A stretch of 64,000 nt of DNA, taken from positions 62,001 to 126,000 of the forward strand of contig CAMZAM010000004.1 in the NCBI GenBank assembly GCA_947304185.1, written 5' to 3'. The notes beneath the pieces are model-generated. The model was not told the origin of the DNA and did not search any database. It was given only the letters and a program-made list of their open reading frames with translations. The translations under genes and the position numbers were made by a program. Numbering within the stretch: position 1 is the first letter of the stretch; every line of letters begins with the position of its first letter. This document shows positions 5,392 to 62,628 of this stretch, piece by piece. Origin of the DNA: an uncultured Bacteroidales bacterium. Lineage in GTDB: Bacteria; Bacteroidota; Bacteroidia; Bacteroidales; F082.

Positions 5392-5392
5392 T

Positions 5393-6475: not shown

Positions 6476-6488
6476 GATATATTTTTTG

Positions 6489-6496
6489 CAAAAATA
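6489..6496 (-). promoter_or_regulatory. -7 box for the glycosyltransferase-lgt unit
   Basis: Minus-strand TATTTTTG followed by C lies 13 nt before the start codon at 6475, so any 5' leader would be very short. Confidence 0.55.
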
Positions 6497-6570
6497 ACGA
6501 TTTTATAGATATGTTTTTACAAGAAAATTGTAAAAAATTTTTAACTTAAATTGCATAAATCTGGAATAAA

Positions 6571-6596
6571 ACGTATCATAATAATACGTAATTTTG
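6571..6596 (+). promoter_or_regulatory. dprA promoter with an inverted repeat
   Basis: A -7 box TAATTTTG lies at 6589-6596, only 4 nt before the dprA ATG. An inverted repeat ACGTAT-N7-ATACGT (6571-6576 and 6584-6589) touches the -7 box and could be an operator. The operator role is inferred. Confidence 0.5.
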
Positions 6597-6600
6597 CGCC

Positions 6601-7698
6601 ATGACAGATCAAAAACTTTACGAAATAGCTCTTACGCTAGTCCCGGGAATCGGATATGTAAATGGTAAGAAGTTGGTGGCCTATTGTGGAGGCGCTGAGG
6701 CTGTGTTTTGTGAGAAGAAAAACGCCTTGACAAAGATTGGCGGGGTGACTGATAGCATAGTGCAAAGCCTTGATTCTAAAGAGATTATGCTTCGAGCCGA
6801 AAAAGAAATGAAGTTCATTGAAAAGAATGGTATCAAGCCGCTTTTTTACCTCGATCAGGAGTATCCCAAACGTCTTCAACATTGCGCCGACAGTCCGCTG
6901 GTGCTTTATTACAAAGGTAATGCTGACTTGAATGCCGAAAAGGTGGTTGGCGTGGTCGGGACACGCAATATCACCGACTACGGACGCTATATGACGGAAC
7001 AGATTATTGAAGATTTGTCGGCAAATAACATATTGATAGTCAGCGGTTTGGCGTATGGCATCGATGCGGCGTCACACACGGCCGCTTTAAAATATAATCT
7101 TGCTACCGTTGGTGTGCTGGCACACGGGATGCATACTATTTATCCAGCTGAAAACAAGAATTTATCTTTAAAAATGCTTGAGAAAGGAGGTGTTTTAACA
7201 GAATTCATGAGCGGAACGAAGCCCGAAAAGGTATATTTTCCACAACGTAACAGGATCGTGGCAGGAATGGTCGACTGTCTGGTTGTCGTTGAGAGTGCAT
7301 TGAAAGGAGGCGCTATGATAACGGCCGAACTGGCCAATTCCTACGATCGCGAAGTGTTTGCAGTGCCGGGGAAAGTTGGCGACATATACAGCGAGGGATG
7401 TAACCATCTGATAAGGACCAACAAAGCCAATCTTGTGACCAGCGCTACAGATATCAGATACGTCATGAGGTGGGATGTTGACACCAAGGTGGTTCCTAAA
7501 CAAATGCGATTGTTCCGCGATTTTAGTGATGATGAGAAAAAGGTTATGGATGTTTTTGAAAACAACAATATCGCTCATCTTGATGATATAATTATTGGGA
7601 CTGATTTGTCGCCGTCGAAAATTGCTTCGGTGCTGCTCTCATTGGAGTTTGACGGGGTTCTGACCGCCTTGCCGGGGAAACGTTATCAAAAGTTGTGA
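6601..7698 (+). CDS. dprA: DNA-processing protein DprA
   Basis: DprA loads RecA on incoming single-stranded DNA during natural transformation. The 365-residue protein has the three usual parts. An N-terminal helix-hairpin-helix region begins LTLVPGIGYVNGKKLV. A Rossmann-like DNA-binding domain carries VGVVGTRNITDYGR, IVSGLAYGIDAASHTAAL and FPQRNRIVAGM. A C-terminal winged-helix domain (DLSPSKIASVLLSLEFDG) is the DprA winged-helix (DML1-like) region. The promoter is unusually close to the start codon. No other competence gene is seen nearby. Confidence 0.93.
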   Translation: MTDQKLYEIALTLVPGIGYVNGKKLVAYCGGAEAVFCEKKNALTKIGGVTDSIVQSLDSKEIMLRAEKEMKFIEKNGIKPLFYLDQEYPKRLQHCADSPLVLYYKGNADLNAEKVVGVVGTRNITDYGRYMTEQIIEDLSANNILIVSGLAYGIDAASHTAALKYNLATVGVLAHGMHTIYPAENKNLSLKMLEKGGVLTEFMSGTKPEKVYFPQRNRIVAGMVDCLVVVESALKGGAMITAELANSYDREVFAVPGKVGDIYSEGCNHLIRTNKANLVTSATDIRYVMRWDVDTKVVPKQMRLFRDFSDDEKKVMDVFENNNIAHLDDIIIGTDLSPSKIASVLLSLEFDGVLTALPGKRYQKL

Positions 7699-7701
7699 TG
7701 T

Positions 7702-7725
7702 TTTTTATTTATAATTAAATAAAAA
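7702..7725 (+). terminator. A/T-only hairpin between dprA and rsgA
   Basis: TTTTTATTTA and TAAATAAAAA form a perfect 10-bp palindrome around a 4-nt loop. It contains no G or C, so termination would be weak. It sits just before the rsgA -7 box. Confidence 0.35.
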
Positions 7726-7729
7726 TCTG

Positions 7730-7737
7730 TACCTTTG
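7730..7737 (+). promoter_or_regulatory. -7 box for rsgA
   Basis: TACCTTTG lies 20 nt upstream of the rsgA ATG at 7758, which is preceded by GCAAGG. Confidence 0.55.
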
Positions 7738-7757
7738 CACCGTTTTTAAGCGCAAGG

Positions 7758-8666
7758 ATGCCGATAGGTAGAGTAATCAAGTCAACAGGAAGCTGGTACG
7801 ACGTTCGCAACGACGCCGGAGAGGTGGTGCTATGTCGTTTGAGAGGCAAAATACGCCTCGATGGTCTGCGTACTACAAACCCAGTAGCCGTTGGCGATCT
7901 CGTGAACTATGAGAAGGAACGAGATAAGGAGACTTGCGTGATAGATAGAATCTTGCCGCGTACAAACGTGATAGTCCGTAAATCGGTGAATCTCTCTAAA
8001 GAATCGCATATCATCGCGTCGAACGTCGACCAGGCGATTCTCGTGGCAACCATAGCTCAGCCTAGAACATCGACAGGTTTCATCGACAGATTTACAGTGA
8101 CAGCCGAGGCTTATCATATCCCAATTATAATTGTGTTTAACAAATGCGATATCTATGACGATGAGCAAAACGCCATGGCTGAACAACTGATGCAAGTGTA
8201 TAACGGCATCGGCTACGAATCCTTTGTGATATCAGCTAAGACCGGACAAAACTGTGATAGGCTGAAAGCGATAATGAAGGGTAAGATGAGTATGTTCTCT
8301 GGCCATTCCGGAGTGGGTAAGTCGGCACTGGTAAACAGGCTAGACCCTAACCTCAACATCAGGGTGGGAGAGATATCGGAGGTGCATGAAAAAGGTAAGC
8401 ATACTACTACTTTCGCTCAGATGTATGAACTGGGTTTCGGTGGTTATATCATTGATACTCCTGGTATTAAGGAGTTTGCACTGTATGATATGGAGAAGGA
8501 GACATTGGCTCAACGTTTCCCGGAGATGCGCGCCCTTATGCACGAATGCCATTTCAACAACTGCACTCATCTGCATGAGCCGCACTGCGCGATAAAAAAC
8601 GCCGTAGAACAAGGTATCATCGCCGACTGGCGCTACGATAACTATTGTAACATGATGGATGATTGA
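7758..8666 (+). CDS. rsgA: Ribosome small-subunit-dependent GTPase RsgA
   Basis: RsgA is a circularly permuted GTPase acting late in 30S subunit assembly. The 302-residue protein has an N-terminal OB domain (about 1-75). The GTPase motifs follow in permuted order: NKCD (G4, 128-131), SGHSGVGKS (G1, 181-189) and DTPGIKEF (G3, 233-240). The C-terminal zinc site has C264, C269, H271 and C277. The next gene starts 6 bp downstream, so they are likely cotranscribed. Confidence 0.95.
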   Translation: MPIGRVIKSTGSWYDVRNDAGEVVLCRLRGKIRLDGLRTTNPVAVGDLVNYEKERDKETCVIDRILPRTNVIVRKSVNLSKESHIIASNVDQAILVATIAQPRTSTGFIDRFTVTAEAYHIPIIIVFNKCDIYDDEQNAMAEQLMQVYNGIGYESFVISAKTGQNCDRLKAIMKGKMSMFSGHSGVGKSALVNRLDPNLNIRVGEISEVHEKGKHTTTFAQMYELGFGGYIIDTPGIKEFALYDMEKETLAQRFPEMRALMHECHFNNCTHLHEPHCAIKNAVEQGIIADWRYDNYCNMMDD

Positions 8667-8672
8667 TAGCCA

Positions 8673-10064
8673 GTGAAGAAATTGTTGACCATATTGCTTC
8701 TGATGATTTCTGTTGCGATGTTTGCACAACAGCAGGACGACTGTTTTGTTGTCTCAAAAATAAGTTTCAGCGGTAACAAGATTACGAAACCGTCAACAAT
8801 GTATAGGGAAATGCTTTTCAGAGAAGGCGATACGATATGTTCAGAAGAGATTATTAGAGAAAGTCGCGAAAACCTTTTGAACTGCACCCTGTTCAACTTC
8901 GTCGATTTTGACTGGACCGCTGATCCCGATAATGCAAATGCCAAGAAATTGACAGTCAATGTGGTGGAGCGCTGGTATCTTTGGCCTATCCCATATCTGG
9001 CTTATGCCGACAGAAACCTGCGATCTTGGTATGAAGCCGATAACATCGCGCGAATGAGCTACGGTTTTGACCTTGTGTATAAAAATTTATGGGGACTGAA
9101 ACATGAGCTCGACCTTACGATTATCGGAGGTTACAACCAGAACTTCGGCTTGTCGTATGATATTCCGTATCTTACAAGCAAGCAACGACTGGGAATTAAG
9201 GCATCTGCCGGTTATACCCGTAATAGGGAAGTGGCATATATCACTGAAGACGATAAAGTCAAATATTTTAAAGGCGAAGACAAATATGCGCATGAATCGT
9301 TTTACGCGTCGATTATGCCGTATTACAGATTCGGTTACCGTAACAAATTGTTTTTACAATTAGATTACAACGACAGAACGTTCAACGACAGTCTTCCACT
9401 GTTAAATACCGACTTTGCTAATCCTGAAGGTACTCGTTTTCAATACCTTACACTGTCGGCGATATTCAAAAACGACTACCGTGACGACCACAACTATCCT
9501 CTCGACGGTCACTATTTTGAGGTGGAAATGACAAAGATAGGTCTCGGGTTGTTCGACTATTCGCCTGATCTGTTTTACACAAAGGTCACTGCTGACTGGT
9601 ATACTCCTGTGAGCGGCCGTTTCTATTGGGCGTCAAACGTTACAACGAAGGTATCGGACAGCAAGACGGCTCCTTACTTCTTGTCGCAAGGCTTCGGCTA
9701 TCATAACGACTACGTCAGAGCCTTCGACCTATATGTTGTCGATGCGCTAAATTACGCCATCTGTAAGAATAATTTGAAGTTCGAGATATTAAAACCTGTA
9801 ACGAAACACCTGCCTTTCGTCAAAAATGAAAGATTCGGAAAGATACATCTTGCACTGTATCTGAACCTGTTTTTCGATTTTGCATACACGTGGGATGTGG
9901 TGATTCCACAAGGGTTTGACACAAGAATTGCAAATAAATTTATCTACGGAACAGGTTTTGGCATAGATTTTGTTACGTATTACGATAAAGTATTGCGATT
10001 GGAGTACGGCGTCAACGCTTTGGGTGAGTCGGGATTCTTCGTCCATCTCGTGGCTCCAATTTAA
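8673..10064 (+). CDS. Outer membrane barrel protein with one POTRA-like domain
   Basis: The 463-residue protein has a signal peptide (MKKLLTILLLMISVAMFAQ). A single POTRA-like domain follows (VSKISFSGNKITKPSTMYRE and the following segment to about residue 95). The rest is a beta-barrel rich in alternating aromatic strands, with the late segment FIYGTGFGIDFVTYYDKVLRLEYG typical of the BamA/TamA/ShlB superfamily. The start codon is GTG at 8673. One POTRA domain is fewer than the five of BamA, so this is a paralogue and not the main assembly factor. Its substrate is unknown. It sits between rsgA and nadK. Confidence 0.75.
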   Translation: MKKLLTILLLMISVAMFAQQQDDCFVVSKISFSGNKITKPSTMYREMLFREGDTICSEEIIRESRENLLNCTLFNFVDFDWTADPDNANAKKLTVNVVERWYLWPIPYLAYADRNLRSWYEADNIARMSYGFDLVYKNLWGLKHELDLTIIGGYNQNFGLSYDIPYLTSKQRLGIKASAGYTRNREVAYITEDDKVKYFKGEDKYAHESFYASIMPYYRFGYRNKLFLQLDYNDRTFNDSLPLLNTDFANPEGTRFQYLTLSAIFKNDYRDDHNYPLDGHYFEVEMTKIGLGLFDYSPDLFYTKVTADWYTPVSGRFYWASNVTTKVSDSKTAPYFLSQGFGYHNDYVRAFDLYVVDALNYAICKNNLKFEILKPVTKHLPFVKNERFGKIHLALYLNLFFDFAYTWDVVIPQGFDTRIANKFIYGTGFGIDFVTYYDKVLRLEYGVNALGESGFFVHLVAPI

Positions 10065-51037: not shown

Positions 51038-51951
51038 TGGTAGGTGTCGCGGTCGGCGAGGTGCCTTTCAATAAGAGCAAGGACCTGGTCGTAGCGGAGA
51101 TTTAGCCAAGGCTTCGAGACAAGGTAACGTGGCGGCACCTCGCCGGCGAAACGCTCTATCACAATATTAGGGTTAAGCCGCTCGATGAAGTCGATAACGA
51201 ATTCGATGTAGTCGTCAAGGGTAAACAAATGAAAATCAGCGGGATTAGCGAGATATTCATCGGCTATCTTAGTGTCTTTGAAGATCTGCAGCTGATGGAA
51301 TTTCACTGTTGTCAGAGGCAGATCCGAGATGATATCAGCGGCATGCAACATCATGTCGCGAGTCTCACCAGGCAAGCCGAAGATGAAATGCCCACCGCAG
51401 TGAAATCCGTATCTGTGAGTGAGCTCTATAGCTTTTTTCGCTGTAGCGAAGTCATGACCGCGGTTGACACGTTTCAAAGTGCTGTCATAAACCGATTCCA
51501 CACCGTATTCGAGGATAACGGTAGTGTTTAAACCTTTCAGCATATCAAGTATTTCCTCGCTGATGCAGTCGGGACGGGTGCCGATGACGAGTCCGATGAC
51601 GTTGTCAACGGAGAGAGCCTCACGATATAGCTTTTTAAGCTCATCTACAGGCTTGTATGTGTTGCTAAACGCTTGAAAATAAGCGAGATACGATTTGGCT
51701 CTACGATAACGGCGCTGGTGGAACTCGATGCCTTCTTCAATCTGTTGGCGCACGCTTTTCTCGGGCTCACAATATGATGGGTTGAAGGCGTCGTTACGAC
51801 AGAAAGTACAGCCTCCGGTGCTTATCTTACCATCACGGTTAGGGCATGAAAACCCAGCATCGATGCTGATTTTCTGAACACGACTGCCAAACTCACGTGT
51901 GAAATACGCGTTGTAGCTGTTGAAACGCCGGTTGTCACCCCAGATAAACAT
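51016..51951 (-). CDS. TIGR01212/YhcC-type radical SAM protein
   Basis: The 311-residue protein has the family start RFNSYNAYFTREFGSRVQK. The iron-sulfur motif lies in CPNRDGKISTGGCTFCRND, with a longer spacing than the canonical CxxxCxxC, as is normal for this family. It also has GTRPDCISEEI and GLPGETRDMML. The chemical role is unknown. A -7 box TATCTTTG lies at 51966-51973 on the minus strand. Confidence 0.9.
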   Translation of the reverse strand: MFIWGDNRRFNSYNAYFTREFGSRVQKISIDAGFSCPNRDGKISTGGCTFCRNDAFNPSYCEPEKSVRQQIEEGIEFHQRRYRRAKSYLAYFQAFSNTYKPVDELKKLYREALSVDNVIGLVIGTRPDCISEEILDMLKGLNTTVILEYGVESVYDSTLKRVNRGHDFATAKKAIELTHRYGFHCGGHFIFGLPGETRDMMLHAADIISDLPLTTVKFHQLQIFKDTKIADEYLANPADFHLFTLDDYIEFVIDFIERLNPNIVIERFAGEVPPRYLVSKPWLNLRYDQVLALIERHLADRDTYQGKHYKL

Positions 51952-51965
51952 TGTGTTATTTTTTG

Positions 51966-51973
51966 CAAAGATA
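51966..51973 (-). promoter_or_regulatory. -7 box for the radical SAM gene
   Basis: Minus-strand TATCTTTG followed by CA, 14 nt before the start codon at 51951. Confidence 0.5.
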
Positions 51974-51980
51974 CAAAATA

Positions 51981-52037
51981 AAGTTTAGAGTTGAGAGTGT
52001 AGAGTTTAGAGTAGTTGAAAAGTTTAAAGTTTAAAGG
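51981..52037. repeat. Degenerate GTTTAGAG repeats
   Basis: AAGTTTAGAGTTGAGAGTG, TAGAGTTTAGAGTAG and AAAGTTTAAAGTTTAAAGG form irregular tandem A/T-rich units between the divergent radical SAM and Smr genes. Confidence 0.6.
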
Positions 52038-52045
52038 ATTTTTCT

Positions 52046-52053
52046 TATTTTTG
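52046..52053 (+). promoter_or_regulatory. -7 box for the Smr gene
   Basis: TATTTTTG followed by CA is 16 nt upstream of the ATG at 52070. Confidence 0.5.
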
Positions 52054-52069
52054 CAAAAATTTCAGAAAC

Positions 52070-53152
52070 ATGGAAAGTTTTAAAGTTGGTGATAGAGTTA
52101 ACTTCTTGAACGACAAGGGTGGAGGAGTGATAAAAAAGATTATCGACACTCGCATGGTGGAGGTTGAAATTGAAGACGGCTTTAACGTGCCGGTTTTGAT
52201 GAGCGACTTGGTTTTGGATTTCCGCGCGCAGCCAACGAGGCAGCAGCAGATGGTCGACAATGTGCGGAAAGAGATTAAGAATCAACAGATTATAGCAGAG
52301 GAGACTAAAAACGAAGCCCGCAGAAGTGAGTTGCGTCGTTTTGCGAGAAGCTCGGAAGAAGAAGGCATATATCTGGCGTTCATTCCGCACGATCAGCAGT
52401 GGTTGCTTACCGGTCCGATAGATGTGGCTGTCGTTAACAACACTCCGGCCGACGCTTTATACAGTTTTAATCTCAAAGATAGTGAAAAATACGCGAATAT
52501 CGACTACGGAAGCATAGCTCCGTTCTCGAAAGTGGTAGTGGAAGCTATATCTCGCGACGACATCGAGCATTGGTGTGATGGTGTGATCCAGGTGGTGCTT
52601 TGCCAGGACGACATCGACTCGGTGTATCATCCGCTGCATGCACCATTTTCGTTGAGAACCAGCAGGTTCTTCAAGGATGGAAGTTTCGTGGAATCAGGAT
52701 TGCTGGGTGAGAAGGCGTTGATGATTTGTTTGTCGACATTAATGGCATTAAAAGGAAAGGAGACTGATTACACCAAGCTGATGAAAGACGGCGTGATGCA
52801 GCCGAAAGCTAACAAAGACATAGTGAAGAAGACTGCTGCCATCGACAAGCATCAGACCGAGCCAGGAGAGGCGATAGTTGACCTGCATATCGGCGAACTT
52901 GTCGACAACATCCTTGGGATGTCGAGCACGGACATCTTCAGAATGCAGATTAACTATTTCAAGAAAATGCTTGACAGCGCTATAGAAAACGACTATTCAA
53001 AGGTGACGTTCATCCATGGTGTTGGCAACGGAGTCTTGAAAAATGCCATCATAGAAGAACTGAAAAACTACGAGAATACATCCAACAGAATGGCCTCGAT
53101 TTCAAGGTTTGGAGTGGGCGCCATAGACGTAATGATTAAAGATAAAAAGTAG
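52070..53152 (+). CDS. DUF2027/Smr-domain protein
   Basis: The 360-residue protein has an N-terminal SH3-like/KOW-type motif (MESFKVGDRVNFLNDKGGG), a central DUF2027 domain (about 90-220) and a C-terminal Smr domain (about 265-355; VDLHIGEL, FIHGVGNGVLKNAIIEEL). Smr domains cut or bind nucleic acids; here HGxGxG is present. Role inferred as RNA/DNA processing. Confidence 0.88.
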   Translation: MESFKVGDRVNFLNDKGGGVIKKIIDTRMVEVEIEDGFNVPVLMSDLVLDFRAQPTRQQQMVDNVRKEIKNQQIIAEETKNEARRSELRRFARSSEEEGIYLAFIPHDQQWLLTGPIDVAVVNNTPADALYSFNLKDSEKYANIDYGSIAPFSKVVVEAISRDDIEHWCDGVIQVVLCQDDIDSVYHPLHAPFSLRTSRFFKDGSFVESGLLGEKALMICLSTLMALKGKETDYTKLMKDGVMQPKANKDIVKKTAAIDKHQTEPGEAIVDLHIGELVDNILGMSSTDIFRMQINYFKKMLDSAIENDYSKVTFIHGVGNGVLKNAIIEELKNYENTSNRMASISRFGVGAIDVMIKDKK

Positions 53153-53187
53153 AGCGAAAACTTTTTACATTTTATTTATTAAATAAG

Positions 53188-53217
53188 TTGTTTGTTTGTA
53201 AAAAGTTAGTATTTTTG
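53188..53217 (+). promoter_or_regulatory. Promoter of the TIR-SUMF1 cluster
   Basis: TTG at 53188-53190 (in TTGTTTGTTTG) and TATTTTTG at 53210-53217 are 19 nt apart. It is the only clear promoter seen upstream of the four genes. Confidence 0.65.
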
Positions 53218-53238
53218 CAAATTGAATAATTGTGCATT

Positions 53239-54780
53239 ATGAAAAAACTAATTCTATTATTAATCGCCGCATTGTTTGTCGTGAATGGCTATTGCAGTAA
53301 CGATGAGGATAAGGAACAGCAGATTTACTATTATTATCTTCAGGGACATAAGTCCGATAATGAGGAAAAGGAAAACTCATCGATAGGTGATGCATTGAGG
53401 TATTATTATTGGAGTCTGGTGCTCTGCTCGACACATCCTCAGGGTTCGACTTTGATGTTCCAGGATCTGGATACCGGTGAAGATATAGTCATCAAGGAAT
53501 GGCTCGGCAACAGGATTGACGATCTTTTGCAGAGGATTAAGTTCATCCCGAAGAAAAAGCCGGTCATGAAAAGCAAAAACAGTGTCGCATACGAGATGAT
53601 TGTCACAGACGGAGCCGACAGGATACCGTGGCTTAAATTTGAATACAACAACGGCAACGGTTATGTTGAGAGTTCGGTGGAAAGCGGTTTGGCTTCGATC
53701 GAGCTGATGGATAAGGACATCACCGATGTCGAAATCGTGGTGTGCATTGAGAATAAGGTTGACGCAGAGGCACGAGCCAAAGAGGTTTATGATGCTATGC
53801 AACAGCTCGGCGCACCTATCACTTTCACATCAGCAGTAAAGAAAGTCGATGTAAAGAAAGTGCAAGACGAAGCGAGCGTTGGTGAGTATCACGACGACGC
53901 TATTCTTAACAAGAAAGCAGAAACCGACCGTCTTATTGAAGAGAGTCTGGCAAACAATATGGATGATTATCTTAAAGCTATGAAAGCTGTTGAAAAAGCT
54001 TTAAGAAACAAGGATGTGAGCGAGGCGAAGAACTATTTCACCCCTGATGGCTATGAGATGTTCGAGTCATTACTCAAAAACGGAAAATATTACATCTTGG
54101 GAACGCCGGAGTATAAGTTTGTCGAGATTAAGGATATGGTGATTTGCAGAAGTATCCCGATGCAGTTTAACTTTAAAAACAATGTCGGGTTTATCAGACA
54201 CGTTGTATTCCGTTTCGACAAAGAATCGAGGAAGGTCAACTCGATAGCGTTCAAGCTCACTGATATGGCAGAGATTGATATTCTCGGTAAAGACCAATGG
54301 AATCCTGGTTCGAGAATGATTCTGATAAATTTCTTGGAGGATTATCAGACAGCTTATGCCTTGAAACGTCTTGATTATCTTGATAAAATCTTCTCCGATG
54401 ATGCTTTGATCATTGTGGGAACGGTGCTCAAACAGAAACAGAAGGGCGATGTGATGCATCTGGCTACGGAGACCAAAGTGAAATATGATACTTTGAGCAA
54501 GGGTAAGTATATCGACAAACTGCACAATGTATTTACGAAAAACGAGTTCGTGAACATAAGATTTCTCGATACCGATTTCACTCAGCATAAATCGGGACTT
54601 GAACTTTATGGCATACAGGTCAAGCAGGAGTATCTGTCGAGTACATACGGCGATGTCGGCTATCTCTTCCTGATGGTTGATCTTCGTGAAGAGCTCCCTG
54701 TGATTCATGTAAGGACATGGGAACCTGAGAAAACAGAGAATCCAATTGGATTTGATGATATAATTGTTGAAATAATTTAG
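53239..54780 (+). CDS. Secreted protein of unknown function, possible NTF2-like fold
   Basis: The ATG at 53239 gives 513 residues with a signal peptide ending GYCSN. After an acidic, Tyr-rich segment (QIYYYYLQGHK), there is a beta-rich first half (about 65-180). The second half includes FLEDYQTAYALKRLDYLDK with FSDDALIIVG, which resembles an NTF2-like fold. No catalytic motif is recognised. First gene of a four-gene unit; the next gene is 3 bp away. Confidence 0.75.
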   Translation: MKKLILLLIAALFVVNGYCSNDEDKEQQIYYYYLQGHKSDNEEKENSSIGDALRYYYWSLVLCSTHPQGSTLMFQDLDTGEDIVIKEWLGNRIDDLLQRIKFIPKKKPVMKSKNSVAYEMIVTDGADRIPWLKFEYNNGNGYVESSVESGLASIELMDKDITDVEIVVCIENKVDAEARAKEVYDAMQQLGAPITFTSAVKKVDVKKVQDEASVGEYHDDAILNKKAETDRLIEESLANNMDDYLKAMKAVEKALRNKDVSEAKNYFTPDGYEMFESLLKNGKYYILGTPEYKFVEIKDMVICRSIPMQFNFKNNVGFIRHVVFRFDKESRKVNSIAFKLTDMAEIDILGKDQWNPGSRMILINFLEDYQTAYALKRLDYLDKIFSDDALIIVGTVLKQKQKGDVMHLATETKVKYDTLSKGKYIDKLHNVFTKNEFVNIRFLDTDFTQHKSGLELYGIQVKQEYLSSTYGDVGYLFLMVDLREELPVIHVRTWEPEKTENPIGFDDIIVEII

Positions 54781-54783
54781 CGA

Positions 54784-57510
54784 ATGAAAAGATTTTTACT
54801 GTTATTTCTGATATGCGTTTCAATATTGGTGAAAGCTCAGAATAACGATTCGTTCTTGTGTGTTGACGAATTTCATATTCTTGGACCAGAGCATACCTTT
54901 ATTCTTCCTGATGGTATGCGTAAGACCGACAATAATGGCAAGCCTTGGGCTATGGTCAAAATTGTGGCGAGCGGTTTCGACAGCAAGACACTCAACGACA
55001 TCAGTTTTTACTCACCGAGTTCGACGCTGACGGTGGGAAATGCCAGTATGGATATCAACGACGGCAGCTATAAGATTATAATGTCGTCGGGAGTCAAAGG
55101 AAAGCTGGTGTTTAAATACCAGGGCACTACATTGGAGTATCAGATACCAATGCAGCTGGTTAAAAACCGTGTTTATGAACTCGTTCTTGCCATGCGTTCG
55201 GCCAACCTCACGATTGTGGCGACTCCGTCTGATGCGAAGATTTTCATCGATGGAACGGAAGTGAGTGCTTCGGGCTACGCAAGCGTCAACCTGCCTTTGG
55301 GCGAACACACATATTCGGTTGAGTGTGAAAACCATCTCAACGAGAAAAACAAGACTGTAAGATTAGAGAAAAACGAAAGGCTTGAAGTCAATTTGAGGCC
55401 TTTATTCGGTTATATATCAATCACTTCACAGCCTGCTGGAGCTGATGTTTATATCAATGGCACACGTGAGGGTACAACCCCATATCTCAACAAGAAAATC
55501 AATAGAGGTAAAAACAACGTGGTCCTTAAGAAAAACGGTTATTACGATTATCCGGAGCTTGTTGATGTAGGCATGGGTGAGGAGAAGACGCTGGATGCGG
55601 TATTGGTGAGATACGGCGACTTGTCGTATAATATCGAAAATGCTATCACAGCTGAGCTTACGTTATATCTGAGCCGCGACTCGTTGTATTTTGCTCCGAC
55701 ACAGACGACCGACTCAATATTAGTGACAACCAACAATATTGAATGGAATTTTAAAGACGTTCCACGTTGGGTGAGTCTGTACAAACGTAGTAATGTCCTG
55801 TATATCACATGTTTGGAAAACAGGATGCATGAAGGCAGACAGGCAGATATTACAGTGTTTACGGGCGATATAAGCACTACGCTTCATATTGTTCAGGAAG
55901 AGGGTAAGACCGTGCTGAAATCGGATTTCAACAGCATAGTGTTCGAAGCCGACAGAGACAGTGTGACAAGAAAAATCGAGACTAACGTGTCGGATTGGGA
56001 GATTACAACAAACATCGACTGGATTAATGCTTATGAGATGGGTAATTCACTCGTGGTTGTCTGCGAAGAAAACACCATGCCGGTCTCACGACACGGAAAC
56101 ATCACCGTGCGGGCTTACGATCAGGAAAAGAGCTTTGCGGTGTCGCAGAAGTCACGTGTGACAAGATTTGTGATTCCGAAAGAAGATTATGTCATTGAGA
56201 AAGAAGGTGGCTCGATGGCGATTCCGGTAGGGCAGATCAAAGGCCCTTGGACATGTAGTTCCGACGAGGAATGGATGAAGGTGTCGCGCTCGGGCGATGT
56301 CGTCATTTTGGATTGTGAGAAAAATAATTCAAAAGATCGTCGCGGAAGTTTCATTGTGAATACCGAGACAAAATCTTTGAAACTCAACGTGTCGCAAAAA
56401 GGAGAATATTCTGAGAGTCAGGATGTGATTATCGACAGTAAGCCAACATGGAGCCGATTGTATGTCGATGGCAAGGATGCGGGTCGCACTCCGTTGAGAG
56501 TAACTGCTGATGACTCGTTGCATATGGTAAGCCTTGGCCGTGAGACGAGAGGCATAGTGTACAACAAGGCTAGCGACAACTTGGTGTTTAACACAGGCTT
56601 ACGTTATATTCAACTTACAGCATCGAGTAAGACCTTCGGTTTGAGAAGCGGTTTCATCGGTTCAAAACGCTGGGGCGGATATAATCATTTCCAGCTGAAG
56701 CTTAACAACTGGGATATTAAACCTTCTAATACTAATGGCCCGTTGTATATCATGAGTGCTGGTCCTACGTTTGAAGTGTTGCCATGGATGTCGGTATATG
56801 CCGGTATCGGTGTTGGCGTCTCAAACGATACGTTGAGAGCAATACAGCAGGACTATCCTCAAGAATACAAACATTCTCCTAAAGAGATTAGCGTGGGATA
56901 TGAGTTGGAGGCCGGTTTGATGTTCTATTACAAGAGCATCTTCGCGACAGGCGGTGTACAGGTGAACCACGTGGGAATACACGATAACGTTGACTTTTCG
57001 TTAGGTTTGGGAATGTACTTCAACAGATATTATGATCCGAAATTCGGCTACTGCGCTACCAGAAGCCGTGAGTGGTGGTCGGTTAACTATCTATACAATC
57101 CGGGCCGAAACGGACACGGTTTGATGTTTAACGATGTCGGAAAACATGTAGTCCGCTGGTACATAAAAGCGATGGCAGAGTTTAACAAAGTCTACGATCC
57201 GGATCCTGATCCTGCAGCCACGGTGATAGAAAGAGTCGATGAGGTTGCTCCACTGCTGACTACAGGTGTCACGTTTAACCTGATGCCTGGATTTATCGAC
57301 ATGATGGTCGGAGCTGGCTATCAGGGAAGCGTGGTGTCAAAATCATATATCGATAAAGGCTTGCAGGCTGAAGTCGGAGTTGTCATGAATATCTGGCGTA
57401 TCCCGCTTACGATAATGATGCGTTGCAGCGAACTTGATAAAAAAACGCGTTATCTGACGGTTGATTTCGGCGTCGGCTTCAGCTTTGGTGATTTGTTTGC
57501 TAATAAATAA
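54784..57510 (+). CDS. PEGA/BACON-repeat outer membrane protein
   Basis: The 908-residue protein has a signal peptide (ending LVKAQ). Two PEGA domains follow (about 140-205 and 207-275; LTIVATPSDAKIFIDGTEV and ISITSQPAGADVYINGT). Three BACON-like beta-sandwiches are next (about 295-375, 380-465 and 468-545; e.g. WNFKDVPRWVSL and WEITTNIDWINAY). A third PEGA is at about 548-595. The last ~300 residues are strand-rich and end FGVGFSFGDLFANK, like an outer-membrane barrel. Such domains bind carbohydrates or peptidoglycan-linked ligands in other proteins. Function unknown. Confidence 0.8.
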   Translation: MKRFLLLFLICVSILVKAQNNDSFLCVDEFHILGPEHTFILPDGMRKTDNNGKPWAMVKIVASGFDSKTLNDISFYSPSSTLTVGNASMDINDGSYKIIMSSGVKGKLVFKYQGTTLEYQIPMQLVKNRVYELVLAMRSANLTIVATPSDAKIFIDGTEVSASGYASVNLPLGEHTYSVECENHLNEKNKTVRLEKNERLEVNLRPLFGYISITSQPAGADVYINGTREGTTPYLNKKINRGKNNVVLKKNGYYDYPELVDVGMGEEKTLDAVLVRYGDLSYNIENAITAELTLYLSRDSLYFAPTQTTDSILVTTNNIEWNFKDVPRWVSLYKRSNVLYITCLENRMHEGRQADITVFTGDISTTLHIVQEEGKTVLKSDFNSIVFEADRDSVTRKIETNVSDWEITTNIDWINAYEMGNSLVVVCEENTMPVSRHGNITVRAYDQEKSFAVSQKSRVTRFVIPKEDYVIEKEGGSMAIPVGQIKGPWTCSSDEEWMKVSRSGDVVILDCEKNNSKDRRGSFIVNTETKSLKLNVSQKGEYSESQDVIIDSKPTWSRLYVDGKDAGRTPLRVTADDSLHMVSLGRETRGIVYNKASDNLVFNTGLRYIQLTASSKTFGLRSGFIGSKRWGGYNHFQLKLNNWDIKPSNTNGPLYIMSAGPTFEVLPWMSVYAGIGVGVSNDTLRAIQQDYPQEYKHSPKEISVGYELEAGLMFYYKSIFATGGVQVNHVGIHDNVDFSLGLGMYFNRYYDPKFGYCATRSREWWSVNYLYNPGRNGHGLMFNDVGKHVVRWYIKAMAEFNKVYDPDPDPAATVIERVDEVAPLLTTGVTFNLMPGFIDMMVGAGYQGSVVSKSYIDKGLQAEVGVVMNIWRIPLTIMMRCSELDKKTRYLTVDFGVGFSFGDLFANK

Positions 57511-57518
57511 GACAGGTT

Positions 57519-58823
57519 ATGAAGTTTTTTAGATACATATTATGTTTGCTGATCATTATGCCATTGGCGATGACGGCGCAAAACAAGAAAAATCTCTCCA
57601 AACAATATGTTGGCAAGATTGATGTGGTTGATAGAACAGGTATTCAGAATTTTTACGTTAAGCATGGCGAATTCAGACTTGATTTCGACACAAAGGTGAC
57701 TGACGCGTATAACTATATGTATACCAAGAACTACAAGTATTTTGTCATCGTGAGAGATTCGAAAGACAATGTTATCAGTGCGAAGATGAATAATTACGAG
57801 CTGCCTTTTAAGAATATGAGCGGTGTGAAAATCTTAAAGGCCGGATATTCAGTTCCAGATTATATTTATGTTGAGAAACGTAACATAACCTACAAAGGAG
57901 AAGCGCAGTTTAAGTACTATCTACACGCTTTAGGCAGGTTGCTGGGGCCTTACGATGAGGTGCTCGACTTGTTCCCTGATGGGTTTATTTTCAGGTCTGG
58001 CAGTGTATACGGATATAGCACATATGATATTGACGATGTGAGCGATATCACTTATCCTATTCCTACGGAGTCGCTATATGTTGAAAAGACTATCAAATGC
58101 AATTTGAGGAATTCGGTGCTTGAGTTCAAGCCTTCCGATGATGTGCGTTATTACAGCACTTCCGATGGCCATTATTATTTGCTGTATTACGATAATTACA
58201 TGGATAACACCCTTATGGTTGTCGATGGCACAGGATACGAGCTCGACGGTGCGATGGAGACCGTAGATTTCAAATACTCGCAGAATGGACAACATTGGAT
58301 TGCGGCTTATTCAAACAATGTGATGGTCGACGGTGTCAGTATGATGCCGCTATCAGACAAAATCAAGCATATAGCGATAAAAAACAACGGCGATTATGCT
58401 TTTGTCGTTGAAGGTAAGGATAAAAACGACAAATTGTATTTCGGTGAGGATATGATAATGCAAGGCGCAGATGTGAAATGGCTCGCTGTTGACTTCAATG
58501 AGCGCTTTAATTATATATGCCGGAACAAAAGAGGCTATTTCTATGGCATCGATAATCAGCTTAGTGCGAAAAATGAGGATATGAAGAATTATTATTATCC
58601 GGCACTTTTCGACAGTGATGAGAAGTTCGTTGTGATGTCGAACGATGGCAAACATGTCATGGAATACAGCTACGACACACCATACATCGTTATTGACAAC
58701 ACGCGTATTGACGGGCCGTCGATTCCGCATTATGCCAAGTGGAATGAAACCGAGAAAAGCTTCGTTTGGAATGCTGTTGAAGGTGTGAATCTTTATTTAT
58801 ACGAATACAAAGTGAAAGAATAA
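57519..58823 (+). CDS. Secreted beta-propeller-like protein
   Basis: The 434-residue protein has a signal peptide ending AMTAQ. The second half contains repeated blades of the form SxDGxxxxxYYxN...VVDG (STSDGHYYLLYYDN, SQNGQHWIAAYSNNV and KNNGDYAFVVEG), as in TolB/WD-like propellers. No catalytic motif is seen. It starts 8 bp after the PEGA gene. Its stop overlaps the start of the TIR-SUMF1 gene (TAATG), so it is tightly linked. The ligand is unknown. Confidence 0.75.
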   Translation: MKFFRYILCLLIIMPLAMTAQNKKNLSKQYVGKIDVVDRTGIQNFYVKHGEFRLDFDTKVTDAYNYMYTKNYKYFVIVRDSKDNVISAKMNNYELPFKNMSGVKILKAGYSVPDYIYVEKRNITYKGEAQFKYYLHALGRLLGPYDEVLDLFPDGFIFRSGSVYGYSTYDIDDVSDITYPIPTESLYVEKTIKCNLRNSVLEFKPSDDVRYYSTSDGHYYLLYYDNYMDNTLMVVDGTGYELDGAMETVDFKYSQNGQHWIAAYSNNVMVDGVSMMPLSDKIKHIAIKNNGDYAFVVEGKDKNDKLYFGEDMIMQGADVKWLAVDFNERFNYICRNKRGYFYGIDNQLSAKNEDMKNYYYPALFDSDEKFVVMSNDGKHVMEYSYDTPYIVIDNTRIDGPSIPHYAKWNETEKSFVWNAVEGVNLYLYEYKVKE

Positions 58824-60208
58824 TGCAATACGACGTATTTATAAGCTATTCCCGTAGGGATTATCTGGATGAGAACGGAGATGTTATCCCTGGTAACATT
58901 GTTTCCAAAATCAAGGATGTGCTGAAGAAAAACGGCATCAGCTATTGGTTCGACGAAGATGGTATCAATTCTGGAGACGAGTTTGCACGGCTTATCATAA
59001 GAAGCATCAAAGATTCGAAGGTGTTACTGTTTGTGTCGACAGAGAACTCGAACAATTCGTCATGGACGCGCAAGGAGATAGCTTCGGCAATATCTTACAA
59101 AAAGAAGATTATACCGTTTAAATACGACGACACTCCGTTTAACGATTCGTTATTGCTTTATCTTGCCGATTTGGATTTCATTTCCTATAAACAACAAGGA
59201 AGCAGGGCACTTAATAGACTCGTTACGAGTATTTCCAATTATCTTGACTCTATTAAACCTGTTGAGCCTGCGGAGATAGCCGAAGTTGAGACAAAACCGG
59301 AACCAAAACCTAACCCTAAGAAACAAGAACCTGTCGCGAAAGCTCCGAAGGGTAAGTCGAAGACAGGGAAGGTGTTGCTGATAACGCTGTTATCGATAGC
59401 GTTGATTGGAGCTGCGGTTATTGCCTTTAAGGGCATTAACTCAAAACAGCAGGGCGGCGAGGGCGTCGCTGAAGATATAGTCGCCACTGAAGTAAAGACA
59501 GAGCAAAAGATTGAACCTGCTGTGCCCCAAAAAACAGAGGTTAAGTCGGAAGGAAAGACCACAACATCTGTTCAGCAAGAAGCCAAGCCTGTTGAGAAAA
59601 AGGAGTTGAAAGACGCCACCATCAGTGTCAATGGTGTGAAGTTTGATATGATTGCAGTGAAAGGCAATGGTAAGATCGGCGATTTCTGTATCGGAAAATT
59701 TGAGGTAACACAGAAGCTTTGGAAGGCTGTGATGGGAATGTCGGTCAAACAACAGCGCGACCTCCTGGATTCGTCGTTCAAGCTGAGAGGAGAAGACGAC
59801 GATATGCCTATATATTTCGTCAGTTGGGATGATTGCCAGAAGTTTATCAAGAAACTTAACGCAATGACAGGCAAGAAGTTCCGTCTGCCCACTGAGGCTG
59901 AATGGGAATATGCCGCTAAGGGTGGTCAGAAGTCGAAAGGCAAGCTTTACGGTGACAGTGATGACGCTTCGAGTTACGGATGGTATGAAGATAACAGTGG
60001 CGGAACAACACATGTCGCAGGTACTAAGAATCCAAATGTCTTGGGATTGTACGACATGGTTGGAAATGTCAGTGAGTGGTGCCAGAATTGTGTGGTGAAA
60101 GGTGGCAGTTGGGCTAACACTGCCGACCACTGCAAGGTCACAAGCCGTAATGCGGTTGACTCTTTCATTCGCACTGATGACACTGGGTTCAGACTTGTGA
60201 TGGATTAA
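58823..60208 (+). CDS. TIR domain - transmembrane - SUMF1 (FGE-sulfatase-like) protein
   Basis: The 461-residue protein starts with a TIR domain (about 3-140): YDVFISYSRRD, GISYWFDEDGINSGDEF and SSWTRKEIASAI, with Glu85 in the position of the NADase catalytic glutamate. A basic/Pro-rich linker leads to one membrane segment (about 184-203). The C-terminal SUMF1/FGE-like fold (about 270-461) has KFEVTQKLWKAVMGM, FRLPTEAEWEYAA, GNVSEWC, GGSW and DTGFRLV. TIR would be cytosolic and SUMF1 periplasmic. This suggests a signal receptor. NAD-cleaving activity and ligand are inference. It ends 7 nt from tRNA-Arg. Confidence 0.88.
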   Translation: MQYDVFISYSRRDYLDENGDVIPGNIVSKIKDVLKKNGISYWFDEDGINSGDEFARLIIRSIKDSKVLLFVSTENSNNSSWTRKEIASAISYKKKIIPFKYDDTPFNDSLLLYLADLDFISYKQQGSRALNRLVTSISNYLDSIKPVEPAEIAEVETKPEPKPNPKKQEPVAKAPKGKSKTGKVLLITLLSIALIGAAVIAFKGINSKQQGGEGVAEDIVATEVKTEQKIEPAVPQKTEVKSEGKTTTSVQQEAKPVEKKELKDATISVNGVKFDMIAVKGNGKIGDFCIGKFEVTQKLWKAVMGMSVKQQRDLLDSSFKLRGEDDDMPIYFVSWDDCQKFIKKLNAMTGKKFRLPTEAEWEYAAKGGQKSKGKLYGDSDDASSYGWYEDNSGGTTHVAGTKNPNVLGLYDMVGNVSEWCQNCVVKGGSWANTADHCKVTSRNAVDSFIRTDDTGFRLVMD

Positions 60209-60215
60209 ATAAAAG

Positions 60216-60287
60216 TGACCCCGCCGGGATTCGAACCCGGACCGAAGGAACCGGAATCCTTAATTCTATCCATTAGACTACGGGGCC
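60216..60287 (-). tRNA. tRNA-Arg (CCG)
   Basis: Minus-strand cloverleaf with acceptor GGCCCCG/CGGGGTC (one G-T pair), anticodon stem AAGGA/TCCTT and loop TTCCGGT, giving CCG (Arg). The T-arm is CCGGGTTCGAATCCCGG. It lies 5 nt downstream of tmRNA and is probably cotranscribed. The CCA is not encoded. Confidence 0.95.
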
Positions 60288-60292
60288 ATCTG

Positions 60293-60690
60293 TGGAGCTG
60301 GAGGGAGTCGAACCCTCGTCCAAACAAGGAACAATTATGCTTTCTACATACTTATTCTGTTGTTGGTTTTCGAGCTGTGCAAGGAAACAGACATCCTAAT
60401 CGCAACCTTATCTCCTTGAGTTTCACGACGTTGCCGGAGCTTCCGCGTCGCTATCCCGAAATTGCTGAGCACCTCGTTGCCGGACCGGAATCGGGAGTCT
60501 CCATCCGCGAGATGTCTCGTCCTCTCACCTTGTGAAAGGATGAAGCTTTAATCTACTATACTTCGATTAAGCAGCGAGAGCGTAAGTATTTTCGCCAATT
60601 AATTTTTTGCAGTCAAGATTTACGAGCGTCACTGCGAGGCTCGGTATGCTTACATAACCCTTCTACAAGCTGTCAAAACCGGTCAGCCCC
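60293..60690 (-). ncRNA. ssrA: tmRNA (transfer-messenger RNA)
   Basis: The 398-nt gene reads GGGGCTGACCGG at its 5' end and ends with GGTTCGACTCCC followed by TCCAGCTCCA. The two ends pair as the tRNA-like acceptor and CCA is encoded. The tag reading frame at 60567-60596 gives GENTYALAA and a stop (resume codon GGC). This fits the GENxYALAA tag of Bacteroidota. It rescues stalled ribosomes with SmpB, which is not in the window. Confidence 0.95.
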
Positions 60691-60724
60691 AGATTATGCT
60701 GATTTTGATTCATCAAAAATCGTG

Positions 60725-60732
60725 CAAAAGTA
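60725..60732 (-). promoter_or_regulatory. -7 box for tmRNA
   Basis: Minus-strand TACTTTTG followed by C lies 34 nt before the tmRNA 5' end; the tRNA-Arg would be on the same transcript. Confidence 0.5.
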
Positions 60733-60748
60733 CAAATATTTTCCGAAT

Positions 60749-61897
60749 TTAGAGATATTTTTTTATGTCTTCATCGGAAATCGTTGAGCCACAGAGAATT
60801 ACCAGTCGCCCGACGACATTCTGCAGTTCGCGAATGTTACCGCTCCAATGTTGTTTTTTCAGTTCTTCGATGGCAGAGTCGGTGAAGGTAGGGGTGGGCT
60901 TACCCATCTCGAGGGCTGATTTCACCACGAAACGGTTAATTAATAGAGGTATATCGTCGAGGCGTTCGCGCAGTGGCGGCACCTTCATTATTATCATGCT
61001 TATGCGGTGATAGAGGTCTTCGCGGAAGTTGCCTTTTGTTATCTCGTCCTGAAGGTTTTTGTTGGTGGCAGCGATTACTCTGACATCCACTTTTATCTCT
61101 TCTTCGCCACCTACGCGAGTTATTTTGTTTTCCTGGAGGGCGCGGAGCACCTTAGCCTGCGCCGCCAGACTCATGTCACCGATTTCGTCGAGGAATAGCG
61201 TGCCGTTGTTGGCGAGTTCGAAATCGCCTTTCTTTTGCTTTATGGCCGATGTGAAAGCTCCTTTTTCATGTCCAAATAGCTGACTCTCAATGAGTTCTGA
61301 TGGTATGGCGGCGCAGTTCACCTCGATGAAGGCGTTATCTTTACGTGGACTCAGCTCATGCAGTTGGCGTGCCACGAGTTCTTTTCCTGTGCCGTTCTCG
61401 CCGAGGATGAGGACGCGTGCGTTGGTAGGTGCGACGCGCTCGATCATGTTGTGCAGTTCCTGCATCGCGTCAGAAGTCCCCACCATCTCGTGTTGTTTGC
61501 TGACAACGGTCCTGAGAATCTTCGTCTCATTGACCAGACGGGATTTGTCGAGGGCGTTGCGTAGCGTGATGAGCATGCGGTTGAGGTTCATCGGCTTCTC
61601 GATGAAGTCGTAGGCTCCTTTTTTTATCGCGTCGACGGCGATGTCGATGGTGCCGTGGCCTGAGATGATGATTATCGGTGCATCTGTCAGTGTCTTAGCC
61701 TTTTCAAGGAATTCTATGCCATCCATCTGAGGCATCTTGATGTCGCAAAAGATGGCGTCGAAGGTATCGCCGTTAAGCATAGGCAAAGCCTCGATAGCCG
61801 AGGCAGCCTCGGTTATTGTATAGCCTTCGTTCTCAAGTATCCCGTGCATAGCACGACGGATAGCAGGCTCGTCGTCGATGATAAGTACTTTCGCCAT
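60749..61897 (-). CDS. Sigma-54-dependent response regulator without a DNA-binding domain
   Basis: The 382-residue NtrC-family protein has a receiver domain (about 3-115; phosphorylatable Asp52 in FCDIKMPQMDG) and a sigma-54 AAA+ domain (about 138-365). The Walker A is GENGTGKE at 166-173 and Walker B TLFLDEIGD with Asp237. The sigma-54 loop reads GAFTSA instead of GAFTGA (213-218). The protein stops at DEDIKKYL with no Fis-type helix-turn-helix, which most NtrC proteins have. It overlaps the LOG-family gene by 1 bp. No histidine kinase is in the window. Confidence 0.9.
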   Translation of the reverse strand: MAKVLIIDDEPAIRRAMHGILENEGYTITEAASAIEALPMLNGDTFDAIFCDIKMPQMDGIEFLEKAKTLTDAPIIIISGHGTIDIAVDAIKKGAYDFIEKPMNLNRMLITLRNALDKSRLVNETKILRTVVSKQHEMVGTSDAMQELHNMIERVAPTNARVLILGENGTGKELVARQLHELSPRKDNAFIEVNCAAIPSELIESQLFGHEKGAFTSAIKQKKGDFELANNGTLFLDEIGDMSLAAQAKVLRALQENKITRVGGEEEIKVDVRVIAATNKNLQDEITKGNFREDLYHRISMIIMKVPPLRERLDDIPLLINRFVVKSALEMGKPTPTFTDSAIEELKKQHWSGNIRELQNVVGRLVILCGSTISDEDIKKYL

Positions 61898-62601
61898 TAG
61901 AAGTTAGGTTTAAGATCAGATTTCTTATAGAATTCGTCGATGATTCTCACGGCTTCGCCGACGTCGTCGACAAGATGGAAAAGACCCAACTCGCTTTCAT
62001 CTATCACCTTGTTCTCGATGAGAGTGGTCTTAAACCAGTCAACGAGACCTCCCCAGAATTCGGAGCCCATCATTATGATGGGGAAGTGTGCTATTTTGCT
62101 GGTCTGGATGAGCGTCAGGGCTTCTGACAGCTCGTCGAGAGTGCCGAAACCACCTGGAAATGCTATGAATCCTTGGGCGTAACGGGTGAACATCGTCTTA
62201 CGGATATAGAAATAGTCGAAGTTGATGCATTTGTCGTTGTCGATATATGGATTTGAGTGTTGTTCATGAGGCAGGACGATATTAAGTCCGACGCTCTTTC
62301 CGCCCGCTTCGTGTGCACCTTTGTTTCCCGCTTCCATGATGCCTGGGCCGCCGCCAGTGATGACGCCGAAGCCTTTCTGGACAAGTTTTGTTGCCGTTTC
62401 GGTGGCCATCTGGTAGTATTTGTTGGATTCTTTCAGACGTGCGGAACCAAAGATGGCAACGCATGGTCCGATTCGCGATAATGTCTCGTAACCATTAACA
62501 AATTCTGACATTATCTTAAACACCGACCAGGAGTCGTTAGCCTTGACAGAGCTCCATTTTCTGTCGTCGATGGCTTGTTTTATTTTATCTGCAAAATTCA
62601 T
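61897..62601 (-). CDS. LOG-family (TIGR00730 Rossmann fold) protein
   Basis: The 234-residue protein belongs to the LOG family, known from plant cytokinin-activating ribohydrolases. It has VAIFGSARL, GVITGGGPGIMEAGNKGA and the catalytic motif PGGFGTLDELSEALTLIQ. It probably hydrolyses nucleotide 5'-monophosphates. It is 1 bp overlapped with the sigma-54 activator, so the two are coupled. Confidence 0.9.
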   Translation of the reverse strand: MNFADKIKQAIDDRKWSSVKANDSWSVFKIMSEFVNGYETLSRIGPCVAIFGSARLKESNKYYQMATETATKLVQKGFGVITGGGPGIMEAGNKGAHEAGGKSVGLNIVLPHEQHSNPYIDNDKCINFDYFYIRKTMFTRYAQGFIAFPGGFGTLDELSEALTLIQTSKIAHFPIIMMGSEFWGGLVDWFKTTLIENKVIDESELGLFHLVDDVGEAVRIIDEFYKKSDLKPNF

Positions 62602-62620
62602 GATGACATAGTTTATTTTG

Positions 62621-62628
62621 CAAAGATA
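62621..62628 (-). promoter_or_regulatory. -7 box for the LOG-sigma-54 activator unit
   Basis: Minus-strand TATCTTTG, preceded by TTCG and followed by CA, is 19 nt before the ATG at 62601. Confidence 0.55.

What the first reader, a model, noticed from the sequence alone, without database searches (positions are those of the whole stretch)
53188..60208. Four-gene secreted/PEGA-BACON/propeller/TIR-SUMF1 cluster: candidate transmembrane sensing system
The sequence shows one promoter and four same-strand genes with gaps of 3, 8 and -1 bp. Three encode signal peptides: a possible NTF2-like protein, a PEGA-BACON outer membrane protein and a propeller. The fourth has cytosolic TIR (Glu85), one membrane segment and a periplasmic SUMF1-like domain. 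TIR domains in bacteria often cleave NAD or make signal nucleotides in defence. The domain order suggests detection outside and a TIR response inside. This combination is not one I know as a described system.
Basis: partly seen in the sequence, partly recalled or inferred. Interest (0 to 1): 0.75.

Follow-up and report, generated by a model that had tools for sequence, protein, structure and literature searches.

The report
Envelope sensor cassette with TIR output
A Bacteroidales genome carries a small removable gene block that seems to link an outer-membrane protein and a secreted partner to a membrane-anchored TIR enzyme, a layout like an animal surface immune receptor; what it does is inferred, not shown.

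Summary
Observation confirmed: four same-strand genes (gaps 3, 8, -1 bp), three with signal-peptide-like starts, the fourth TIR (Glu85) - one membrane helix - FGE/SUMF1-like domain. Interpretation partly supported: the conserved core is three genes, not four. P2 (PEGA/BACON, probable barrel) and P3 (propeller-like) occur together in the same 18 of 99 genomes of the genus; a TIR-membrane protein lies with them in 17 of 18. P1 is linked in 3 of 18, the FGE ectodomain in 2 of 18. Two different TIR lineages fill the slot (one-clade AU p=1.2e-8), so the TIR was exchanged or added twice while the envelope pair stayed. The blocks behave as cassettes: 7 of 7 evaluable non-carrier loci lack the TIR-first form cleanly; for the window form 1 of 4 shows a clean empty site matching 53153-60205. 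The WxRxE Glu is present in 17 of 17. TIR-first TIRs are closest to SARM1 among solved structures; the window TIR is closest to short-Argonaute and CRISPR-associated TIRs, more weakly. TIR domains stay 76% identical while their ectodomains keep 32%. Best reading: an envelope-spanning sensor with TIR output (0.6). Defence is plausible, unproven; activity, ligand and complex are untested.

The parts
53153..60205 (+). whole presence/absence block (cassette); absent from genome G087, where the Smr gene abuts tRNA-Arg
   Evidence: window 51901-53152 aligns to L233 5809-7065, window 60206-60289 to L233 7056-7139, window 60291-62628 to L233 7216-9549; 1 of 4 non-carrier loci compared shows it so cleanly
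53210..53217 (+). -7-like element TATTTTTG of a plausible Bacteroidota promoter
   Evidence: sequence; strict two-element pattern not matched here; consensus recalled
53239..54780 (+). P1, secreted protein of a large unnamed family, fold unknown; lineage-specific accessory
   Evidence: next to P2-P3 in 3 of 18 carriers
54784..57510 (+). P2, signal peptide - PEGA - BACON - probable outer-membrane beta-barrel
55408..55608 (+). best PEGA stretch in P2 (residues 209-275)
55993..56151 (+). best BACON stretch in P2 (residues 404-456)
56599..57486 (+). P2 C-terminal run of long beta strands, probable barrel (residues 606-901)
   Evidence: mean pLDDT of the whole model 67.4; Pfam OMP_b-brl only E=0.07
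57519..58823 (+). P3, signal peptide + all-beta, propeller-like protein; family found only in this genus here
58823..60208 (+). P4, TIR - one transmembrane helix - FGE/SUMF1-like ectodomain
58835..59221 (+). TIR domain of P4 (residues 5-133)
   Evidence: nearest solved relatives
59075..59077 (+). codon of the predicted catalytic Glu85
59372..59428 (+). predicted transmembrane helix of P4 (about residues 184-202)
59675..60199 (+). FGE-sulfatase (C-type-lectin fold) domain of P4 (residues 285-459)

Best explanation
The block is a discrete cassette for an envelope-spanning sensor with TIR output. Working model: P2 sits in the outer membrane with BACON and PEGA domains as binding and contact modules; P3 is a secreted, probably periplasmic, propeller-like partner; the TIR protein crosses the inner membrane once and its ectodomain (FGE here, a helical-looking region in relatives) reads the state of P2/P3 or of a ligand they bind. 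Engagement would cluster the cytosolic TIR domains and switch on NAD cleavage or an NAD-derived signal. P1 is a lineage-specific accessory. Shown: gene linkage, two TIR lineages in one slot, clean presence/absence, conserved active-site Glu, rate contrast. Inferred: locations of P2 and P3, the complex, the switch, NADase activity and the purpose. Within the 0.6 I hold defence against phage or an envelope-attacking competitor somewhat likelier than general envelope-stress signalling.
For: P3 profile in 18 of 99 genus genomes; P2 profile over (nearly) its full length in the same 18 (27 of 99 at 1e-20, the 9 others match only within positions 1-359 of 685; G008 is in two pieces on two contigs). 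TIR-first protein full-length in 15 of 99, all 15 among the 18; order up389-TIR-P2-P3, then ilvE in 13 of 15, G008 in two pieces. With the window and G011: TIR in 17 of 18. Two TIR lineages: AU p 1.23e-8 (36 rows; 7 long rows and 14 of 20 database rows left out; the 57-row tree, seen first, has the same split with weaker support; groups were set by gene context). Nearest solved relatives differ too: TIR-first SARM1 1.6e-36, window kind short-Argonaute TIR 1.8e-8 and Cat1 6.4e-8. Empty sites: 7 of 7 evaluable of 8 fetched for the TIR-first form, gap 78-96 bp; 1 of 4 clean for the window form. WxRxE in 17 of 17 cassette TIRs. Mean identity over 13 of the 15 TIR-first loci: TIR 0.76, ectodomain 0.32, P2 0.51, P3 0.48; neighbours ilvE 0.91, pyrF 0.88, prfA 0.96 over 10-11 loci. 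FGE part closest in the PDB to Treponema variable protein TvpA, 1.2e-27.
Against: G035 (76% complete) has P1-P2-P3 and no TIR; its tmRNA, recognised by alignment, starts 16 bp after P3. No P3 in 100 other-genus genomes, so all carriers are related species. P2 barrel not confirmed (fold search led by Ig-like repeats). P3 propeller matches cover part of the model with query TM 0.14-0.26. The TIR-first form keeps one chromosomal site in 13 of 15 carriers and P3 was not found in viral contigs, unlike a typical mobile defence island. PADLOC gives only weak generic TIR matches. The window TIR by itself has no PDB match under 1e-3. Low identity of P2, P3 and ectodomain may also be relaxed constraint; dN/dS rested on 1-4 unsaturated pairs for the cassette genes and is not used.
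Confidence: 0.6

Rival explanations
1. P2-P3 do a non-immune job (surface binding, polysaccharide capture, envelope upkeep) and the TIR is a scaffold or regulator of it, not an effector.
For: One chromosomal site in 13 of 15 TIR-first carriers; no phage or mobile genes recognised by eye around the cassettes (not searched); BACON and PEGA are binding or envelope modules; G035 keeps P1-P2-P3 without a TIR.
Against: Clean presence/absence between close relatives: IlvE of carrier G021 differs at 1 of 341 residues from non-carriers G070 and G071; WxRxE in 17 of 17; the slot holds two TIR lineages.
Confidence: 0.25
2. Loose neighbourhood: P4 is an independent TIR-FGE gene that landed beside an unrelated secreted operon.
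For: TIR-FGE proteins are common: the best 29 of 29 database matches (P0032-P0060) have both domains; in the genus they occur in genomes without P3 (L129 of G069, L132 of G067, L133 of G031).
Against: Another TIR lineage keeps the same association in 15 genomes; same four-gene order in G011; P1, P3 and P4 homologues share longest-contig lengths 9261 and 11236, P3 and P4 also 10328 (co-location inferred from equal lengths and source).
Confidence: 0.1
3. The FGE domain is an active formylglycine-generating or related oxidase acting on a periplasmic partner, and the TIR is regulatory.
For: Strong FGE-sulfatase match.
Against: Against the human motif as I recall it, the first active-site Cys is Asn here and Ser in G011 (sequences, compared by eye); best PDB match is TvpA, a binding protein by PMC10907252 passages, not an enzyme; 15 of 17 cassette TIR proteins are 314-328 aa and lack this domain (lengths; alignment of 14; Pfam on 2).
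Confidence: 0.05

Closest known systems
SARM1 NAD hydrolase TIR
   Same: TIR-first cassette TIRs match it over residues 4-137, 1.6e-36; active-site Glu aligned (mixed profile)
   Different: Window TIR kind matches it only at 3.3e-5; here one membrane helix and an ectodomain; activity untested
TIR of short prokaryotic Argonaute systems (TIR-APAZ) and Cat1
   Same: Nearest solved relatives of the window TIR kind, 1.8e-8 and 6.4e-8; both NAD-degrading by my recollection
   Different: Those sense nucleic acid or CRISPR signals inside the cell (recalled); no APAZ or Argonaute here
FGS (FGE-sulfatase) conflict-system sensors (PMC7159879, PMC8195603; passages read)
   Same: C-type-lectin-fold FGE domain proposed as invader sensor, found with TIR effectors
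   Different: Described as NTPase-centred and intracellular, often with a retroelement; here no NTPase domain in the four proteins, no reverse transcriptase found, FGE predicted outside the inner membrane
Retroelement-diversified C-type-lectin sensors (PMC10907252; passages read) and TvpA
   Same: FGE-type C-type-lectin domain; a few predicted periplasmic
   Different: No reverse transcriptase match in this genome
Thoeris
   Same: Weak ThsB-like TIR matches
   Different: No ThsA-like gene in the cassette; partners are envelope proteins
Animal Toll-like receptors
   Same: Ectodomain - one membrane helix - cytosolic TIR (layout only; recalled)
   Different: No related ectodomain; an added outer-membrane partner; TIR with the Glu of NAD-cleaving kinds

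Membership tests
NAD-cleaving TIR | TIR fold | tested here: met
   Pfam TIR_2 3.5e-17, 63.4 bits against cut-off 28
NAD-cleaving TIR | active-site Glu in the aligned position | tested here: met
   invariant in 16 of 16 aligned rows, WxRxE in 17 of 17; aligned with the WVHKE Glu of SARM1 in a profile holding both TIR kinds
NAD-cleaving TIR | NAD cleavage or NAD-derived signal | not testable with these tools
   needs biochemistry
Thoeris | ThsA next to the TIR gene | tested here: not met
   P1 and P3 match no PADLOC model, P2 only PDC-M52B at 0.03; no SIR2 or Macro domain; the rest of the genome was not searched for ThsA
Formylglycine-generating enzyme | two active-site Cys | tested here: inconclusive
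   first Cys position Asn or Ser, second kept (sequences), judged by eye against a recalled motif; the PDB matches to FGE stop at residue 422
Diversity-generating retroelement target | reverse transcriptase in the genome | tested here: not met
   PF00078 no match in G000 (98.8% complete, 36 contigs); rings in 3 of 14 control genomes
FGS/NTPase conflict system | NTPase domain in the protein or cassette | tested here: not met
   none in the four proteins
T9SS GldK/PorK | NCBIfam equivalog score | tested here: not met
   59.5 bits against a cut-off of 350
Beta-propeller (P3) | propeller fold | tested here: inconclusive
Outer-membrane beta-barrel (P2) | barrel fold of the C-terminus | tested here: inconclusive
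   run of long strands, mean pLDDT 67; OMP_b-brl E=0.07; fold search led by Ig-like repeats

The most novel reading that the evidence does not exclude
A prokaryotic surface immune receptor laid out like a Toll-like receptor: an outer-membrane BACON barrel and a propeller-like partner detect phage or competitor attack at the cell surface and relay it through an exchangeable ectodomain to a cytosolic NAD-consuming TIR, so the cell responds before anything reaches the cytoplasm.
Probability: 0.3. Interest if true: 0.85.

Novelty: new variant of a known kind. Interest (0 to 1): 0.62.

Why it matters
The bacterial TIR systems I know (recalled) mostly sense inside the cell. A TIR output tied by conserved linkage to an outer-membrane protein and a secreted partner would be surface immunity built like a Toll-like receptor. 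Two natural versions, with different TIR lineages and ectodomains, make the wiring testable: PEGA in P2 goes with FGE on the TIR, while a short helical-looking P2 start goes with a helical-looking ectodomain.

Tried and rejected
P3 beyond the genus: none in 100 other-genus genomes. Viral contigs: 38 pattern matches, no relative. P2 profile in 295 genomes of the order: 32 match at 1e-15; apart from G000 the listed matches lie within positions 1-356 of 685, none reaching the barrel. Two of these neighbourhoods (G229, G303) were read; BLAST found no TIR or P3 relative; the others were not read. P1 fold: no Pfam or PDB match. My first reading that the TIR match to SARM1 applies to the window TIR was corrected on checking: it is the TIR-first kind that resembles SARM1. 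A vertical-core-gene view was dropped after the empty sites appeared. The hypergeometric value (3.8e-15) treats related genomes as independent and is not used. Co-divergence of TIR, P2 and P3 trees was considered, not run. Integrases were not searched for. The RyR/CASTOR paper search gave 0. The genus name was not resolved.

Full report
What is there. P4 has Glu85, one hydrophobic helix from about residue 184 preceded by basic residues, and an FGE-sulfatase domain. The window lies on contig C4 of G000, a 2.08-Mb genome, 98.8% complete. After the block, on the other strand, come tRNA-Arg 60215-60287 and tmRNA 60292-60690.

What is conserved. P3 was sought in 199 relatives: 18 genomes, all of the same genus. 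Its profile gives 18 of 99 genus genomes. The P2 profile covers (nearly) its full length in exactly those 18, and P2 and P3 are adjacent in each of the 18 (in G008 the first part of P2 is on another contig). In 15 carriers a TIR-membrane protein of 314-328 aa precedes P2. Its profile is found full-length in those 15 of 99 genomes only; the further listed matches cover at most the first 201 of 325 positions. In the window and in G011 the TIR comes last and carries FGE. In G035 no TIR follows P1-P2-P3: the tmRNA begins 16 bp after P3 by alignment (ARAGORN did not call it in L070, as the contig ends about there). So TIR accompanies P2-P3 in 17 of 18. P1 accompanies them in 3 of 18; it belongs to a large family (2356 matches at 0.001, candidates capped) and has a 39%-identical paralogue in another cluster of this genome without TIR.

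The TIR slot. In a 36-row tree the 14 TIR-first TIRs used and the two FGE-type TIRs fall in different well-supported groups, each with TIRs of other contexts between; holding the 16 together is rejected, AU p 1.23e-8. Seven long rows and 14 database rows of unknown context had been left out; the fuller 57-row tree, made first, has the same split with support 87/94 and 94/89. Groups were set by gene context, but the second test was run after the first tree was seen, and long branches remain. The nearest solved relatives differ as well: SARM1 at 1.6e-36 for the TIR-first kind; TIR-APAZ of short Argonautes at 1.8e-8, Cat1 at 6.4e-8 and SARM1 only at 3.3e-5 for the window kind (profile of 5 rows, 3 of them from other contexts). 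Exchange of the TIR, or two separate additions of a TIR to P2-P3, both imply that a TIR output matters to this pair; the TIR-less G035 shows that it is not indispensable everywhere.

The blocks are cassettes. For the TIR-first form, 7 of 7 evaluable non-carrier loci (8 fetched, one begins at ilvE) have the flanking genes 78-96 bp apart with nothing between. Among them are G070 and G071, whose IlvE differs at 1 of 341 residues from that of carrier G021. Of 15 carriers, 13 have the cassette between these genes, G008 in two pieces; G018 and G047 keep only the upstream neighbour. For the window form G087 shows a clean empty site: the Smr gene runs straight into tRNA-Arg, so window 53153-60205 is the difference. 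The other three non-carriers compared (G015, G051, G039) are rearranged there and do not show it. G000, G035 and G011 hold the block at three points of one tRNA-Arg/tmRNA neighbourhood, as if inserted or shuffled repeatedly; integrases were not searched for.

Active site and rates. WxRxE is present in 17 of 17 cassette TIRs. Over 13 TIR-first loci the TIR domain keeps 76% mean identity, its ectodomain 32%, P2 51% and P3 48%; ilvE, pyrF and prfA beside them keep 91, 88 and 96% (10-11 loci). Fast outside parts on a steady inside enzyme fit a sensor facing a changing target, and also fit relaxed constraint on surface proteins.

A testable contact. In the P2 alignment all 14 TIR-first rows have no residue in columns 73-268, where the window, G035 and G011 rows have 194-196; this stretch holds PEGA in the window. 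Pfam finds PEGA in P2 of the window and of G035, not in the two TIR-first P2 scanned. So PEGA in P2 goes with FGE on the TIR, and a short helical-looking start with a helical-looking ectodomain (my reading of sequence). In the P1-paralogue cluster of this genome PEGA and FGE are fused in one protein (L019). This suggests, without showing, that the P2 N-terminus touches the TIR ectodomain.

Structure. P3: pLDDT 83.6, all beta; the best matches are proteins I know to hold propellers, TolB among them, but partial and with low TM. P2: pLDDT 67, beta modules and then a run of long strands; the barrel is likely, not confirmed. The FGE part is nearest to TvpA.

Known systems. FGE/FGS domains as invader sensors with TIR effectors are described for NTPase-centred systems (passages of PMC7159879 and PMC8195603) and for retroelement-diversified sensors, a few predicted periplasmic (passages of PMC10907252). 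Their defining partners tested here are absent from the four proteins (NTPase) or the genome (reverse transcriptase), and no ThsA is in the cassette. Searches of the held library: TIR with BACON 0 papers; with PEGA 1, on sponge archaea by its title; with formylglycine-generating and Bacteroidetes 3; outer-membrane or membrane TIR combinations 6, 1 and 4; TIR with SUMF1 or Prevotella 81, 10 listed. Apart from the three papers named, only listings were seen. None of these showed this cassette.

Verdict. Real, conserved within a genus and discrete; a sensor with TIR output is the best reading (0.6). Whether it is defence is open.

Noticed in passing
L019 (G000:C2:98001-112000) 2086-9468: Second cluster in this genome with a PEGA-FGE fusion, a PEGA protein with a weak Lcl_C match, another PEGA-like protein and a P1 paralogue, but no TIR.
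   Followed up: partly
L007 8213-13227 (G000:C1): Another TIR protein (376 aa) directly next to two paralogous secreted proteins; a similar-looking TIR is at L086 1356-2486. Possibly a further TIR-plus-secreted-protein theme.
   Followed up: no
L131 8134-9738 (G038): Protein with a kinase-like N-terminus (by eye), one membrane helix and an FGE part 51% like that of P4: a kinase where P4 has its TIR.
   Followed up: no
L129 7133-11216, L130 666-5203, L132 7751-12464: TIR or TIR-FGE proteins near a long protein with N-terminal membrane helices and a small RyR-like protein (by eye); a similar-looking 676-aa protein adjoins P1 in G011, L071 14967-16997.
   Followed up: no
L006 8747-17103 (G000:C1): Three further TIR matches of this genome within about 8 kb of small unusual genes; may be a separate defence island.
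   Followed up: no
window 60215-60690 against L070 and L071: The block lies at three different positions around tRNA-Arg and tmRNA in three genomes.
   Followed up: partly
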